A DNA stretch of 64,000 nucleotides from [Phialemoniopsis] sp. UDSM-2020 (Eukaryota > Ascomycota > Sordariomycetes > Thyridiales > Thyridiaceae). A program made the position numbers and the translations under genes. The notes under the pieces were generated by a model. The model worked only from the letters and a program-made list of their open reading frames with translations. It was not told the origin of the DNA and ran no database searches. Location of the stretch: assembly GCA_018873225.1 (NCBI GenBank), contig JAEILZ010000004.1:2170001-2234000 (forward strand). Reading direction: 5' to 3'. Below are positions 3,791-39,309 of the stretch, in pieces (within the stretch, counting starts at the first letter, position 1; every line of letters begins with the position of its first letter).

Positions 3791-4455
3791 AACGCGCGCA
3801 AGACAAGGTAAAGAGAATGTAGGCGAAAGTCATGGTTTTCCTCAACCTCATAGATCGACGATCTCGGAAAAAAGGGGTGGAATATGACGTCTCCAGAAGC
3901 GTCAAGTCCACCAGGCTCAGCTTGTTACGGCGATCCTGGCTTTCAAGACTCTGGTTTCTCTGGGATCTGTCGACTGGAAGATTGACACCATGAAAACAGT
4001 GATGGCTCCATAGGTGATCGAACTGCCGCAGCCATCAACCCTGACTCACCGGAGCGAGCAGAGGACGGCTGGGCACAGATCCGTAGTTTGTGAGAGAAGA
4101 GAAAAGAGAAGCGAAAATGAGGACCAGAAAATTTCTTGGGATAAGAAAGTCGCGGTGCAGGGGTGTCTGTGCTGACATAAGCACCACGTGACTCACAGCA
4201 CCTATGCTCGGGACTTGGACGCAGCCAGGACGGACGGACAGTACTGGAGCTAGCCAAGCCAGCCCGTTTCTTTTTTTGGACTGGATGCTAATCGCGATAA
4301 TGCGACACTTCTGCTCTCGCCCTCTCAACAACCTGCCTGCAGTGGACTGCCCCCCTTCCTCTTAATTGTTAAATCTGGTCAGACACATTCAAGTGCATCG
4401 ATACCTTGTGAACACCCGCGAACCCAACCAACACCAATACCCTGGCGCCTTCATC

Positions 4456-8033: not shown

Positions 8034-11000
8034 CTACACTTCGGTCTCAACGTCTGGCTTGCGCCCGTCGAGAGCACCGAGCTTGGTCACTCGGCGCACA
8101 GCAAAGGTAGCCTCGTCCTTTGCGAATGCGGCATTGCGCATTGGTCGCCTACGTATAAATTGTTAGTCAAACGACACAGCCTGATTATCTGACAAGCAGG
8201 AGTCCTACCACTGCATGAGGCCCCTATGCTTCCGATGCAAGTCTCGACTGCGATCCTTGTAGTCTTTGTACTGCTTAAGCGGGTTCTTGCTGCTCGTGGA
8301 GCCAGCGCTTCCCGACGTGCCCGCTGTGTCGGTGGAGGGGCGCGTCGCCATGGCATCGGCGTGGTCGTGCGACTGGTCCCTGTTGCCACTGGCGCCAGTG
8401 CTGTTGGTCTGTGCATCTTGTATGCCGAGATCCGGGTCGCCCGAGTCATCATCCGAGTCTGTGGCGTACTGGTCGTCGTCGGCAGAGTCGTCAGTCGTGT
8501 TGTAGTTGGGCCCTCCGCGGCCGATCATGTCGGAAGGGTCCTTGCCAAAGGCGCCGCTCCAGTCGGTGCCGTCCTTGGACAGCCACTTTTTCTTGTCCTC
8601 TTCGTGAGCCGTGGCCAAAACGTCGCGACCCTGGGTCAGCGAAGCATCGTGCAGCTTCTGGATGGATGGCGGGACCTCTCCGCGGACCTCCTCCGTGCGC
8701 ACACCTTCCGCGTAGCATGCCTCCCACGTTTCGATGGTCTCGCGCGAGTCGTTGTCGCTGACAAACTTGAGGTGATCACGGTCGGTGCCGGGCTTGAAGC
8801 GACCCCTAAATTTGACGCGGCCGAGCTCCTTGATGTCGATGTCGGGGACAGATTTGTAGTTCTCCTCTGTGATGTAGTTCTGTGAAAGCCGTAGACCATT
8901 GTCACACTGCCAGATAGGGAGGTCGAACTCCTTTTCCTCGTTATCGCAAATGTCCTGCAGCCAGAAGACGGCGAAAATGTTGGTGTTGCGCTTGCCAGAC
9001 TGATGGAATTCAAAGAAGACTGGAGAGCGATAGCGGTAGCGGACGGGCAGGCGGATCTTCTCGGACTTGCTGCCCTCGCCGGAAACGTCCCACTTCAGAC
9101 CGCCATCTCCAGATTGAGAGCAGAGCTCACTCTTGACGGTGGCAGAGCTGCCACCAGTGCGAAGGCGAAGCTTCATCTTCGACGATGGAGCCCAGTTGAC
9201 GGTAGAGATGGTATCAGACAAGAACTCAAAGGTGCCAATCTCGCCAAAGCCAAGCTGAGTGGGAGGAAGCTTGAGTTCGATTGACCTGAATAGGACGCTG
9301 ATGCGGACGCGACCGAAACCAATGCCGCCGTCGAGAGGATACCAGCGGGTGCTCTGGCTGCTCGTCAAAAGGATGTCAGACAGGCGAAGAGGCACGACGC
9401 CAATGATGGGGTCATGCTGCCGGTTGCGAGAATCACGGACGGCGACGGTAACAATGGTAGATCGCCAGTCGCGGATGAATCGCTCCGTGCCGGCCTCGAA
9501 GATCGGCTTTGAGGACACGACCTTGGTGCGGGTTTTGTAGACAAGCTCGTCGTTGACCAGAATGGTGCAGTAGGAGCTCGGCAGCTTCTTACTCTGCTCC
9601 TCCTTGAGCTCACCAGCTTCGGGACGGGCGGGCTCATACTCCTTGCCTTTTCTCTTGCCGTCGGATCCCTTGATGTTTTCCAGTTCGAGGTTCACGATCT
9701 GATGCACGACGACACCAAGTACTCCGCTCGGCCAAAGCGGGTCAGGGGGCGTGTGGACAACCGCATCCTCCTCGGCGGTGTCGAGCGCGCCCCTCTCATC
9801 TTGGAGCTCCTTCTTGTCTTGCAGCTCCTTGGGAAGGTTGGGGTCCTTGCCATCGGTCCTGAGTGCCTTGCGGAACTGGGTCTTGCCGAAGAAGCCAACC
9901 TCCCAATGAAGCTCACCAGGCATGGTACTATCCGCCTTGACACCGCGGAGATTGGAGATTTGCGGGAACATCTTCCCGGGGTGCTGGATGAGCTTCTGGA
10001 TGCTAAGCTCGACCTTGCCGACGACATCATCTGCCGAGGATCGGTCACTGTCCCAGAGCTCAAGAGAAAGCTGCTCATCGGCCTTGATGATGTCAGAAGT
10101 GACCAAGAGCTGGGCGCATTCGGAGAAGACGGGGTTGAGGTCGTCCTGGATGACTCGGGTGCAGTACTGGGGCTTGCCAAACTTGGAGAAAGCAATGCAA
10201 ATGTAAGGGTCGGAGCCACCGCCCTTGCTTCCTCGACGGTCTTGCTTGCTGAGTCCAGTGGCCTTGTGGATGCGAATGAAGAGGACACCCAGCGCCTGGG
10301 TGTCCTTCTGGATATCATCGCCCTGAAGCATCTTGCCGATGTCCAGGGTCATCGACTTGGGCGCCACGTACATGCTGGCAGCAGCGGCAATAGCCCAGTT
10401 GACAAAGTTGGAGATCAGTGGCAGGTTCAGGATATTGGCGCCCTTCTCAACCAGAGGAATGCAGCTGGCCTCGACCTTGGGCAGACCCATGAGAGTGAAG
10501 CTCAGAGTCTTGACGAAGGGCGGTGCGGGCGTCAACGCAACGCGGATGCGGGCTGTGCAGACAAGCCCGTTCAGCTCTACCCAGATGGGGAAGGGAACGC
10601 CGAACAAGCCCTTGATGCCGAGGTAGAAGACCAACTGCATGCCCATGTTACGAGCCTTGGAAGAGACATCGTTGCCCGAGGGCAGGGCATGATACGCGAT
10701 TGTGGCTTCCAGGTTGTAGAAGTCGCCGCCTTCCTCATCCGCGGCGAGTTCCTGGGGGTCCTTGGTCTTTTCGTCGTTCTTGCGGATATCTTCCTTGAGG
10801 TCTTTAACCTGCTCGTCCGGCAGAGCTCGCAAGCTCAGGATTCGGAGAGGGTTGCTTCCTTGGGAGATGTCGTTTACCTTGACGTTCTCAACCACGCCAG
10901 GAACACTGGCTTGCATGACATCCTGTAGCAAGTCAGCCGATGTGTGATTGTGCTTTGAGGTGTGATCTAGCTGTACTTACCTCGAGTGTATCAGCAACGG

Positions 11001-34924: not shown

Positions 34925-37900
34925 TTACGATCGACCCTCTTCTTCGTTCCATAGTAGACTCTTCAAATTATCCATTCTGATCGCCTCCAGTGCCGTGTTT
35001 CGGGGCTCGTTGGGTCTGCCCACTGGTTGTGCCAGGGCCTTTTGCAGCCACTCGGTCGATTTCCTCTGATTCTGCCGCTCTGCAATATCTTCACCTCTCT
35101 TCATCCACACCTCGCAATCTTCGAGTTCTGATGGACAGAGGGCTTCTGAAGAATTGTCTTCTCGATTGGCTGGACCTTCAGTGCTGCCTTTGGATTGCGA
35201 GGGGCGAGCTGGGCTAGAGGTCTGATCTATTGGCAATGGGGGATTCGTTGCTTTTCCCCTGGGCGGCCTCTGTCGCCCCTTTTTCTTTCCTCTTCGATGT
35301 GTCCCGACACTCCCCTCGAAGATATCCGTCCGCTGTTCTGCTTCTTCCGCCGTCGGGTCGACTTCCTCCGTTGGGATTTCTTGCGCCGGTTCCGAGGGCA
35401 GAGATGATGCCGAGCCAGAATCCTTTGGGGCGGGTGTTTCGTCTGAGTTGACTTGAGGATTTGGCACTGGCGATGCAGGCTTTACGCCAGGTTCCGTCCC
35501 GTCCTTTCGCATTGGGTCCAAGCCGTTTGGCTCCTGACTAGCTTCCGTTTCCTTTCGCTGCGAAGCAGCCATTTCGTTAGGCGAGACAGGGGGATAGACA
35601 GAGGCAAGTCCGGGAGATGGGGCAGTCGTCTTCGGTGATGAGGGTCTTGCCGTATTTGAACTTGCCTTTTTCAATTCACTAGATGGTTTCTGGTCAAGAG
35701 GTGTGTCCTTAAGTACCTTCCAGTCAGCTTGTTGCCTCTTCGGAACCAAAGAGTGAGCTTTGCCAGATTGTAATCGGGGCCAGGAGCAGGGCTTAAAGCT
35801 TACGTTCTTTCCCGCCATTGGCTCGAGCTTGTCTTTGAAGTGAGCATTTTGCCCAGGCGAACCGGCTGGCTCCATACCTCGGTTGTGACTGATAGTCTGG
35901 GAACTCGGGCTGGGAGGGTGTTTCGGCAATGTGTTCTTTCGGCGCACCTCGTTCTGCCCCCGGGATGAGGGAGATTCTGGAGGCTCTGAAGACTTGAGAC
36001 GAGATAGGTCGGGTTGTGATGGAGTGTCGAAACCGGTGCGCCTTTGCTGCGAGGGAGCAGTTGTCTTGGTTGGCGCCCCTACGCGCGACGACGGCTGAGA
36101 CCTACGCAGAGGCGACAGTCGATCAAGCCCCCCCTTTATGAGCCCTTCCTGTATTCGCGGCGGCGAACTCAGAGGTTGAGGTGTTTTGTTCAGTGGTCCT
36201 GGTTCCTGGATCCTTCGCTGTTGCTTGAGGGGCATGGGTTCGTTTTCGGATTTTGGACTTCGCTGCGTTTGTGCTCTTTGGTCCAGAGAAGGAGCAGACC
36301 TGAGTAGTGGTTCGGAAACGGACTCCTGCTTTTGCATTCCTGGGTCCGAAGTCCGAGCCGATTCGAGTGGCGATTTGAAGGACGATCTTGATTTTGGCTT
36401 CTGACCGGGCGTCTCTGGTCTAAGCGTCGGAATGCTCTCGAAGCTCGTTTGGGCCGGACTATCCTGCGATGCATCCGTACCGTACCCTTTGGGTGAAAGG
36501 TTATGGGCCTTCTTCAGGGGGGGTTCCGCAGCGGTCTGATCCGCTTGCACACTGGATGTGTCATGACTGAGAGCTTGCAGCTCGTCAAGGGCGCCATCGT
36601 GCCCCGGCGCCTCACCTCGTGCGGGTGGCTCATCGTTGGTAACTCTAGACATTGGAGGATTCTCCTTGGCGGTAGCGTTCAAGCCGAGTTGTCTTTGCCC
36701 AGCGGTCTCTATCTGGACTTGACTGCGTGATGTCTGAGCATTCGTTGGAAGGGCCGGCATATATTTCGGAGCGAAAAAGGATTGTTGCTGAGGGCGTGAC
36801 GTCTGCTGCTGGCTCAAAGCTGCACCAGGCCTAGTGGTCGGAATATTATATTGGTGGTCGACTTGTCCCGGGTGGTGCAGCCCATACTGCTGACCGCCTA
36901 GCATCTGTTCAGATGCCTAGTTCTGAACTCCAAGACCATCGGAACAAACTCTTTGTTCTTGAAATCGCGCTCCATTCGCCCAGGATCCTGTGGTTGAGGG
37001 CAGCTGCGGGCACCAGCCCCGTCCTGGCTCAAACGCGGGTGCTTGTGGGTTCAACATGACGCAGTCGTCTTCATGACTGTGCATAGTCTGTCTTGAATCT
37101 TGATGAGGCAGCAGTGCTCCATGCATTAATTGTGAATCAGAACCCCGTGATGGATCAGTAGAGTGATGGGGCCAAGTACCACATGCAATGACGGGCTGCC
37201 GAGTGGAGGCCTCTGCCGACAAGGGAGATGGTAGGACATCAGAGGATAGAATCCGTGGCGTATGCGGTGGCAGCGAAGAGGAACGCTGCCCGTCGGTTTG
37301 TGCTGGCCTTGGATGACGCACTGCAGTCATGCGCGGAGAAGGCGGCTTGTGAGGGGGTGTGCCTAGCAGAAGAGACCTATCGCTCTGCTCGCCATTGTCC
37401 TCGCCCGGTTGATCTTGATTAAGTGGCTCTTGTAGAACATCCGAGCTATATGGCAATCCTCTGTTTACGAACGGGGATACCAGATAGTCGATCAAATGCT
37501 GGCGATCATGATGGCACGGGTTGACCACGAAGATCCGTAGCGTTCCTAGGTTGGAGAAGGAAAGCAAAGCATTTGCAATGTTGACGACTGGCCCATGATC
37601 AATATCGTCAACTTGCTGACCGATGGACATGGAAGGACACTTCAATATAACATGGACGGTATGGATGAAGTGACACAACGTCTTGTCGCGATACAGTCTG
37701 AAATGGTCACGGAATGGGAAGGGCTTTCGATGCATCTAGTCATCTTGCCAGCCTGCTTCGATCTTGCTCCTGAGCCAGACAGTGATTGTGAGCGGGTGTT
37801 TTCTGAAGAGATATGCCTTGAAACGCTTCTCGTCTGCCGAAGTCGCGGGCTGATCGTGGCTGGGAAGGAGGGAACGACAATTGGAGAAGACCGGGCGAGC

Positions 37901-38156
37901 AGCTATGGGAGCGGGCCGACCATGTCGTATTTGGATGTCAAGCCACGACGCACCGGCCAGGTGAGACAGTGCTTCATGGTTGAGTATCGCCGATTCGACG
38001 GGGCCAGGGGCTTGGAGCAGGTCTGGGGGAGTCTGGAAGAAGTCTGGTGGCAGACTGCTACAGAGTCAGATAGCTCGCATCCAGCGTGTCAGGAGACGAC
38101 GTAGCTTACAAGTCAGCATAATCATCCCAGTCGCCCGGCGCTGCACCATTGTTCAT
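34925..38156 (-). CDS. Large unknown protein whose frame contains two in-frame UAG codons
   Basis: Function not recognised. Exon 1 is complement of 38110-38156 (MNNGAAPGDWDDYAD), exon 2 complement of 34925-38057; the 52-nt intron has a GTAAGC donor and TCTGTAG acceptor and the join gives DYADFSLPPDFFQTPPDLLQ. The frame is 1,059 codons and is interrupted only by TAG at codon 123 (37736-37738) and codon 396 (36917-36919). Sequence on both sides of the first stop is ordered and protein-like: RFKAYLFRKHPLTITVWLRS before, then HRKPFPFRDHFRLYRDKTLC and VVNIANALLSFSNLGTLRIF after. From about codon 270 it is Ser/Pro/Gln-rich disorder, ending in a charged Trp-containing tail (CEVWMKRGEDIAERQNQRKS). 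Both TAGs sit in loops of inverted repeats. Candidate explanations are A-to-I edited premature stops, pseudogene, or sequencing error. Only these two codons break it. Confidence 0.72.
36907..36928 (-). other. Inverted repeat with in-frame TAG in its loop (site 2)
   Basis: On the transcript strand GTTCAG and CTGAAC form a perfect 6-bp stem around the 10-nt loop AACTAGGCAT; the in-frame TAG lies in the loop, with its A at 36918. The pairing is seen directly; its biological meaning is inference. Confidence 0.6.
37722..37749 (-). other. Inverted repeat with in-frame TAG in its loop (site 1)
   Basis: On the transcript strand GATG and CATC pair around the 8-nt loop ACTAGATG. An outer GGC/GCC stem is separated by an internal loop (AA against GAAA). 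The in-frame TAG lies in the loop, with its A at 37737. Confidence 0.5.
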
Positions 38157-39309
38157 GTTTCATGCGATCTATGTCAATCTTGACCAGGGGGGTTGTATCC
38201 GGATGCAGTCGCAGTCCGATGATTATGATGATGATAATGTGATGGCAAAGGGTGTCGGAAGAGATATTAGTAAGTACAAGTAGGAGAGAAACCCATGAAT
38301 GAATGTGAGCACAATCAAGTACTGTAGGTACTTTAGGTGTGCTAGGTGTTTGAAAGAATTGCGACGGCCAGAGTTCAGGCGTTGGTTAATGGTCTTCACC
38401 GTTCTTGCTCATCGAGTTCTACACTGCTTGTCATTCCTCGCGGAAGGTGATGAATAATCAACTGGGACGGACCAGACAGCACTTAAGAACACATCAAAAA
38501 AGACACACAGGGGGTCAATTGGCGGCTTAAAATGTAGATCTCTAAAATGAAACAGCCAACAGATGGGACAACTGATGACGGTGATTAACGACGGATCATT
38601 TCTTCTCTGGGCGGTCCGGATGACAACAGAATGCGTCTCGCCTGCGGTATGCACTGGCTCATGGCCCCTCGTGAGAAGGGCTGAGCAGTGCGTGCCGACG
38701 AGGATCGCCCATGACTATCTTGAAGAAGAAGAAAAAGAAGAAGAAAGAGAAGGAGGGAATTGGGCTGACCCACGATATCAATTTTAGGATAAGCTATCGG
38801 GCTCGGAAGGGGCGTTTCTCCGGTCCCCCAACCCCAGCCATGCCACATCAAACGCAGTTCACCCTGCGAGTAGTTATTACCATCAGCCGCCGTCTCATTG
38901 GACAATGGCCCCAAACCATCCACTCAACCTACGTATTTGATGTACATACTCCGTGCTCCCTGGAGTATCATCAACAACATCAACCAGCCAGCTTCTTAAG
39001 TTTGGTGGTCTCTCTGTCTATAGAATCGTTTGAACAAATCAAAATGCAATGGATTGTTTGCTCCATCTGTACACAGCTATCATAATACAGAAACAGCGGT
39101 GCCGTACTGGCCAAGTGAAGTTAGTTGCCTGATCCGCAACTGGCCTTGCTCCTTCCCTTCTTCCTCCTCTTACGCGCGCACCTCTCTCACTCCGCTTTGC
39201 TTCAAGATACTCCCTGTTTCACACGCAGCCCCTCCCTCACTCCCTCCTTCCAACTCCCTCTCGCTCGTTGCCCGCTCTGCTGTACACTGCAGACCTTGGC
39301 CGATCCAGT
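38157..39309. other. Intergenic region
   Basis: 5' side of the two-UAG gene and 3' side of SDHC. It holds a GAA/AAG-rich purine tract at 38720-38755 and an ACCTAGGTA-like motif near 38325-38350. No coding sequence supported. Confidence 0.55.
38720..38755. repeat. (GAA)n-like purine tract
   Basis: Imperfect GAA/AAAG repeat, purely A and G for about 36 nt on the plus strand. Confidence 0.8.

What the first reader, a model, noticed from the sequence alone, without database searches (positions are those of the whole stretch)
34925..38156. A 1,059-codon gene broken only by two in-frame UAG codons: candidate A-to-I recoded gene
Seen: after a well-defined spliced start (intron 38058-38109) a single frame runs 3.1 kb to a normal stop, interrupted only by TAG at 37736-37738 and 36917-36919. 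No frameshift, TAA or TGA occurs, and ordered protein-like sequence lies on both sides of the first TAG. Known: in Sordariomycetes (Fusarium graminearum, Neurospora) sexual-stage A-to-I mRNA editing turns UAG into UGG and rescues genes with premature stops, and edited sites favour a 5' U and hairpin loops. Inference: this is a sexual-stage gene needing two edits for a full product; otherwise only a 122-residue peptide is made. A decaying pseudogene would be expected to show more varied lesions.
Basis: partly seen in the sequence, partly recalled or inferred. Interest (0 to 1): 0.87.

Follow-up and report, generated by a model that had tools for sequence, protein, structure and literature searches.

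The report
Fungal gene with two editable stops
In a mould whose genome carries the known parts for rewriting RNA, one long gene is interrupted by two stop signals of the kind that such rewriting can turn into ordinary code, so it is probably read in full only after its RNA is edited; this has not been shown with RNA.

Summary
On the minus strand a spliced start (exon 38156-38110, intron 38109-38058) leads into one frame of 1,059 codons, broken only by TAG at 37738-37736 and 36919-36917. No consensus intron spans either TAG.

The best reading is premature-stop correction by A-to-I mRNA editing. The genome encodes Tad2-like and Tad3-like proteins and a DUF726 protein with residues reported as needed in Ame1. 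A PUK1-like kinase in it reads TAG-TGG, the arrangement reported as edited in Neurospora NCU03242. Both window A's lie in hairpin loops in the +/-30-nt fold, as do 119 of 305 control TAGs. TAG 2 has a perfect 7-bp stem, reached by 2 of 304 controls.

Against it: no RNA evidence; no homologue found (fungal coverage unchecked); weak codon bias; folds that change with the length folded; and a kinase site that is paired in most folds. A very young pseudogene remains possible. If true, this is a new member of a known kind, notable for two stops 273 codons apart.

The parts
38110..38156 (-). Exon 1: ATG start and first 15 2/3 codons
   Evidence: A at -3 of the ATG
38058..38109 (-). 52-nt intron, GTAAGC...CTGAC...TAG, followed by CAG (tandem acceptor)
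   Evidence: consensus only
37739..38057 (-). Exon 2 up to the first TAG (to codon 122); contains no Met
37736..37738 (-). In-frame TAG 1 (codon 123), candidate UAG to UIG site, A at 37737
37729..37744 (-). Weak hairpin around TAG 1: 4-bp stem GAUG/CAUC with 8-base loop (A fourth); the minimum-energy fold adds a C-G pair and a bulge, leaving a 5-base loop (A second)
36920..37735 (-). Middle segment, codons 124-395, open; begins with ATG right after TAG 1
   Evidence: base use differs by codon position, p = 0.004
36917..36919 (-). In-frame TAG 2 (codon 396), candidate UAG to UIG site, A at 36918
36907..36928 (-). Hairpin around TAG 2: perfect 7-bp stem GUUCAGA/UCUGAAC, 8-base loop ACUAGGCA with the A fourth
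   Evidence: 26-nt fold z = -3.29, 61-nt fold z = -0.79
34925..36916 (-). Last segment, codons 397-1059 plus terminal TAA; low-complexity
   Evidence: base use differs by codon position, p = 4e-12

Best explanation
The locus is one protein-coding gene with two genomic UAG codons, corrected in mRNA by the fungal Tad2-Tad3-Ame1 A-to-I editing system. Without editing, ribosomes make a 122-residue product. Editing of A37737 alone gives a 395-residue product, and editing of both A's (UAG to UIG, read as Trp) gives 1,059 residues. Shown: the frame, the stops, the lack of a consensus intron across them, genes for the machinery, and a PUK1-like gene with an in-frame UAG in the same genome. Inferred: that this transcript is edited, that editing is sexual-stage, and what the protein does. 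It has no recognised domain; an ordered N-terminal part of about 200 residues spanning TAG 1, followed by a low-complexity tail, is my own reading of the sequence.
For: Frame and stops. No consensus intron across either TAG; of the 5 other single-stop frames in the survey, 2 show a typical in-frame intron starting GTAAG over the stop. Tad2-like and Tad3-like genes: best PDB matches are the TAD2 and TAD3 chains of 7bv5. The DUF726 protein at C5:3853316-3854433 (minus) has, counting the Ser of GYSLG as S531, E546 and R548, and MV at 501-502; E546/R548 and MV500-501 are reported as needed for Ame1 to contact Tad3, the one-residue offset being taken as a length difference. Its paralogue on C1 has R, G and LD at those places. 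A PUK1-like kinase exon on C1 has GAC-TAG-TGG-AGC and is otherwise open, as in N. crassa NCU03242, where UAGUGG to UGGUGG in perithecia is reported. Published preferred flanking bases: 4 of 6 at TAG 1, 5 of 6 at TAG 2, two of the six being given by UAG itself. Both A's lie in hairpin loops in the +/-30-nt fold used in the literature. SdhC next door ends in TAG, so UAG is an ordinary stop here.
Against: No RNA data. No relative in three protein searches, so orthologous residues could not be checked. GC3 of the last two segments is 0.50 and 0.53, a level reached by 1 of 49 long ORFs sampled. The codon-usage score is highest in the true frame for the first and last segments, but for the middle segment one other frame scores higher. 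Hairpin placement is common: 119 of 305 control TAGs at +/-30 nt, 173 of 304 at +/-15 nt. The fold depends on length: A36918 is paired at +/-20 and +/-75 nt and outside any helix at +/-50; A37737 is paired at +/-50, 75 and 100 nt. As 61-nt stretches neither site folds better than shuffles (z = -0.79 and +0.31). At least 4 of 6 preferred bases occurs at 161 of 304 control TAGs, at least 5 at 54. The PUK1-like site is in a loop only at +/-15 nt and paired at +/-20 to 50 nt, and in the three PDB alignments printed (ULK1) its place holds Leu. Matched stretches of RID-type methylase and SPO22, genes reported as edited in Fusarium, hold no stop here.
Confidence: 0.74

Rival explanations
1. A very young pseudogene: two nonsense mutations arose recently in a dispensable gene and have not yet been followed by other lesions.
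For: Two stops are what about 1.6% neutral divergence would give; 43% of stop-making single changes here make TAG, so both TAG has P about 0.19. Codon bias is weak. No relative was found.
Against: At that divergence about 52 substitutions and, at an assumed 1 indel per 8-15 substitutions, 3.5-6.5 indels are expected; no frameshift is seen (P about 0.001-0.03). At d of 0.1, two stops or fewer has P about 4e-4. Base use by codon position persists to the last segment. GC3 does not fall at TAG 1 (0.60 before; 0.59 in codons 124-215; 0.46 in 216-395). A 7-bp stem centred on TAG 2 is rare.
Confidence: 0.16
2. Two or three separate short genes, or a polycistronic mRNA with re-initiation: ATG follows TAG 1 at once and TAG 2 after four codons.
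For: The ATG placement: Met as next codon has P 0.017, and within five codons 0.08, in this frame (chosen after the fact).
Against: Both downstream ATGs lack a purine at -3 (T and C), while the main start has A. All segments share one frame without a gap. Re-initiation after a 122-codon ORF is inefficient in eukaryotes (general knowledge).
Confidence: 0.06
3. The TAGs are removed by unrecognised introns, or read through by the ribosome without editing.
For: FgBUD14 is reported to combine PSC editing with alternative splicing of the stop-bearing intron. For TAG 2 one in-frame GT..YAG pair has a middling 5' site (GTTTGT), without a branch-like motif.
Against: 0 of 63 and 0 of 145 GT-AG pairs within 250 nt of TAG 1 and TAG 2 combine a good 5' site, a branch-like motif and YAG. 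The bases after each TAG do not match readthrough contexts that I recall.
Confidence: 0.03
4. The UAGs are edited, but by an OLD-type deaminase in hyphae rather than by Tad2-Tad3-Ame1 in fruiting bodies.
For: The genome has 4 matches to the OTT_1508 deaminase family; OLD enzymes are reported to correct UAG in zao genes of Neurospora.
Against: None of the 4 matches is in or near the window (the nearest on C6 is about 1.4 Mb away), and the gene has no recognised zinc finger, whereas OLD and ZAO genes are neighbours.
Confidence: 0.04

Closest known systems
PUK1 of Fusarium graminearum / NCU03242 of Neurospora crassa
   Same: In-frame UAG corrected to UGG; PUK1 also has two UAGs; the annotated intron over them is not real
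   Different: PUK1's two UAGs are adjacent and inside a kinase domain; here they are 273 codons apart in a protein with no known domain, and there is no RNA evidence
The 69 further genes with UAG-to-UGG editing in exons in F. graminearum (PMC4817773, section 12), a majority without known domains
   Same: Uncharacterised protein, UAG within the coding region
   Different: Those were found from perithecial RNA-seq; this one rests on DNA alone
OLD-ZAO modules of Neurospora
   Same: Premature UAG, editing proposed as an on-switch
   Different: No neighbouring OLD gene and no recognised zinc finger here
CHE1 of F. graminearum
   Same: Premature UAG in the coding region
   Different: CHE1 is a zinc-finger factor edited in hyphae, more so after H2O2

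Membership tests
PSC-edited (premature stop corrected) fungal genes | Premature stops are UAG, in a frame otherwise open | tested here: met
PSC-edited (premature stop corrected) fungal genes | Stop not removed by an intron | tested here: met
   (consensus test only, no cDNA)
PSC-edited (premature stop corrected) fungal genes | Coding sequence continues past the stops | tested here: met
   Open frame and base use by codon position in all segments; codon bias is weak and the middle segment scores below one other frame
PSC-edited (premature stop corrected) fungal genes | Edited A in a hairpin loop with preferred neighbours | tested here: inconclusive
   Loop at +/-30 nt for both; strong stem only at TAG 2; other fold lengths disagree; controls often pass
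PSC-edited (premature stop corrected) fungal genes | Organism encodes Tad2, Tad3 and an Ame1 with the Tad3-contact residues | tested here: met
   residues placed by counting, activity not tested
PSC-edited (premature stop corrected) fungal genes | A-to-G in sexual-stage RNA but not in hyphal RNA or DNA | not testable with these tools
   no RNA data reachable
PSC-edited (premature stop corrected) fungal genes | Orthologues with Trp or UAG at the sites | tested here: inconclusive
   No homologue found; fungal coverage of the database was not checked with a control
OLD-ZAO antiviral module | Zinc-finger protein next to an OTT_1508-like deaminase | tested here: not met

The most novel reading that the evidence does not exclude
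A gene under two-step editing control: two UAGs 273 codons apart, each able to sit in an 8-base hairpin loop beginning ACUAG that resembles the tRNA anticodon loop, so that independent editing of the two sites yields three nested products (122, 395 and 1,059 residues) in proportions set by editing level.
Probability: 0.35. Interest if true: 0.6.

Novelty: new member of a known kind. Interest (0 to 1): 0.45.

Why it matters
If edited, this adds an uncharacterised gene to the set whose full product depends on RNA editing, with two distant sites that must both be corrected. It also suggests that DNA alone (long TAG-only frames, an Ame1 residue signature and a PUK1 control) can nominate such genes in a fungus without RNA data. 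An ordinary gene finder would probably report a 122-residue gene or invent introns, as was reported for PUK1 (PMC4817773).

Tried and rejected
Homologues: three searches scored 7,990, 530 and 478 candidates and gave nothing, at E up to 1 for the N-terminal part in the last two; no positive control was run, so this cannot be read as absence. Families: Pfam to E 10, NCBIfam to E 1 and PDB sequences to E 10 gave no match. Paralogue in the genome: none found. Naming the fungus: a 5.8S rRNA search found nothing; an aspartic-protease scan was compared by eye with Cryphonectria endothiapepsin as I recall it, similar but not identical, so the genus stays unknown. Further PSC controls: the matched stretches of RID-type methylases (5 matches) and SPO22 (1 match) hold no stop; the rest of those genes was not read. 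Kinases: 12 of the 137 matches have a TAG inside; I looked at six of these 12, which include all five with TAG as the only stop. In four of the five others the TAG lies at the edge of the match, as at an intron boundary; L023 has several stops in an intron-like stretch. The other six were not looked at.

A genome-wide count of TAG-only frames was planned but not possible; the survey covers 194 kb of 44 Mb.

Full report
What is there. On the minus strand, exon 38156-38110 joins across a 52-nt intron to 38057-34925. The frame has 1,059 codons plus TAA, with TAG at codons 123 and 396 and no other stop. The exon-2 part before TAG 1 has no Met, so the spliced start is needed. The other two minus frames of exon 2 hold 40 and 24 stops, the plus frames 31, 36 and 38. 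In 194 kb (window plus 130 kb of the same genome) six single-stop frames passed the thresholds (each side at least 100 codons, together at least 500): three TGA, two TAA and one TAG, which is TAG 2 of this gene. Among frames of at least 1,000 codons with two inner stops, only this one is divided into three segments of at least 100 codons. Five Markov-1 shuffles gave neither kind. A genome search found no second copy.

Could the stops be spliced out? I listed the GT-AG pairs across each TAG within 250 nt (63 and 145). None combined a good 5' site, a branch-like motif and YAG; for TAG 2 one in-frame pair has a middling 5' site but no branch-like motif. With a similar motif test, two of the five other single-stop frames show typical in-frame introns of 54 and 57 nt starting GTAAG; the other three end a reading frame or are unclear.

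Can this fungus edit? Published work (PMC11087585, outline and sections 17 and 18 read) says editing needs Tad2-Tad3 plus Ame1, a DUF726 protein; MV500-501 and E546/R548 of Ame1 are needed, and MV arose in Sordariomycetes. The genome gave four DUF726 matches, in two genes. Counting the Ser of GYSLG as 531, the C5 copy has E546 and R548 exactly in place and MV at 501-502, one residue off, which I take as a length difference; the C1 copy has R, G and LD at those places. This is by counting, not by alignment to Fusarium Ame1. Of eight deaminase matches, one is Tad2-like and one Tad3-like, with the TAD2 and TAD3 chains of 7bv5 as best PDB matches.

A control gene. The genome search listed 137 kinase-domain matches (124 of 224 candidates scored); 12 have a TAG inside, and I looked at six of these. 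One, at C1:4067587-4067775 with its neighbour 4067944-4068270, has ...YDGRCD-TAG-TGG-S... in an exon of 254 codons otherwise open. PMC4817773 (abstract and sections 4, 12-14 and 16 read) reports that NCU03242, the N. crassa PUK1, has UAGUGG edited to UGGUGG in perithecia. That this is the PUK1 orthologue rests on the identical site and on its kinase type; there is no tree. The 63-residue fragment matches ULK1 best in the PDB, with STK38 and CBK1 a little below; in the three alignments printed, all ULK1, the place holds Leu. Trp there in NDR-type kinases is recalled.

The sites. Published preferences are C/U at -2, U at -1, A/G at +1, G at +2, A/G at +3 and +4, and hairpin loops for over 62% of sites (PMC9600606, abstract and parts 1-2 of 7 of section 3). 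TAG 1 has 4 of 6, TAG 2 and the PUK1-like site 5 of 6; two of the six come with UAG itself. Among 304 control TAGs in long ORFs, 161 have at least 4 and 54 at least 5. In the +/-30-nt fold both window A's are in hairpin loops, as are 119 of 305 controls; the PUK1-like site is not, being in a loop only at +/-15 nt. The longest ungapped stem puts both A's fourth in an 8-base loop beginning ACUAG. TAG 2 then has 7 Watson-Crick pairs, a number reached by 2 of 304 ORF controls and 21 of 3,100 TAGs in all; TAG 1 has 4, reached by 15% of the 304. The minimum-energy fold of TAG 1 instead closes a 5-base loop through a bulge, while the centroid has the 8-base loop. The 26-nt TAG 2 hairpin folds with z = -3.29 and the 23-nt TAG 1 hairpin with -1.05, but as 61-nt stretches the z-scores are -0.79 and +0.31. 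Other fold lengths disagree: A36918 is paired at +/-20 and 75 nt and outside any helix at +/-50; A37737 is paired at +/-50, 75 and 100 nt.

Is it decaying? Random single changes here make TAG 43% of the time, so two TAGs have P of about 0.19. Two stops fit a divergence of 1.6%, about 52 substitutions, at which 3.5-6.5 indels would be expected under an assumed ratio; no frameshift is seen. Base use differs by codon position in all segments (p = 0.045, 0.004, 4e-12). Against this, GC3 of the last two segments is 0.50 and 0.53, a level reached by 1 of 49 sampled ORFs. The codon-usage score is low throughout, though highest in the true frame for the first and last segments; for the middle one another frame scores slightly higher. 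GC3 is 0.60 before TAG 1, 0.59 in codons 124-215 and 0.46 in 216-395, so its fall is not at either TAG; the difference between the first segment and the rest has p = 0.12. I read this as a weakly expressed gene rather than decay from TAG 1 on, but cannot exclude relaxed selection.

What the protein is. No Pfam, NCBIfam or PDB relative and no homologue. From the sequence, an ordered part of about 200 residues seems to span TAG 1 and a long low-complexity tail follows. It was not folded.

Other papers seen: PMC11156358 (section 0, parts 1-2 of 3), PMC11169179 (part 1 of 5), PMC12754623 and PMC7306014 (passages). Qi et al. 2024, on restorative editing, is not held, so whether this gene's orthologue is among published PSC genes was not checked.

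Verdict. The frame and stops are real. Editing is the explanation that best joins the TAG-only lesions, the lack of introns, the encoded machinery and the PUK1-like gene. It stays a candidate until RNA is seen.

Noticed in passing
L022 (G000:C1:4067587-4068270, minus): PUK1-like kinase with in-frame TAG before TGG, as reported for Neurospora NCU03242; a good RNA control for this fungus.
   Followed up: partly
L002/L005 (G000:C5:3853316-3854433) and L003/L004 (C1:8507983-8509042): Two DUF726 genes; only the C5 copy has the Ame1 contact residues. The C1 copy lies near the contig end and has one TAG in one matched stretch, not examined further.
   Followed up: partly
window 38122-38163: A 13-codon upstream ORF (ATG 7 nt before the main start) overlaps the start in another frame.
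   Followed up: no
window 37733-37738 and 36902-36919: ATG follows TAG 1 at once and TAG 2 after four codons, both without a purine at -3.
   Followed up: partly
window 38055-38060: Tandem TAGCAG splice acceptor, which would vary the protein by one residue.
   Followed up: no
window 8208-10931, minus: Mug190-like (meiotically up-regulated family) C2-domain gene in the same window.
   Followed up: no
window 3815-4099, minus: Strong Rfam match to the Aspergillus sRNA Afu_309 (172.3 bits), near a SART-1 gene.
   Followed up: no
G000: C4:3511730, C6:3655494, C9:2656555, C6:4332752: Four OTT_1508-type (OLD-like) deaminase matches; neighbours not examined for zao-like genes with UAG.
   Followed up: no
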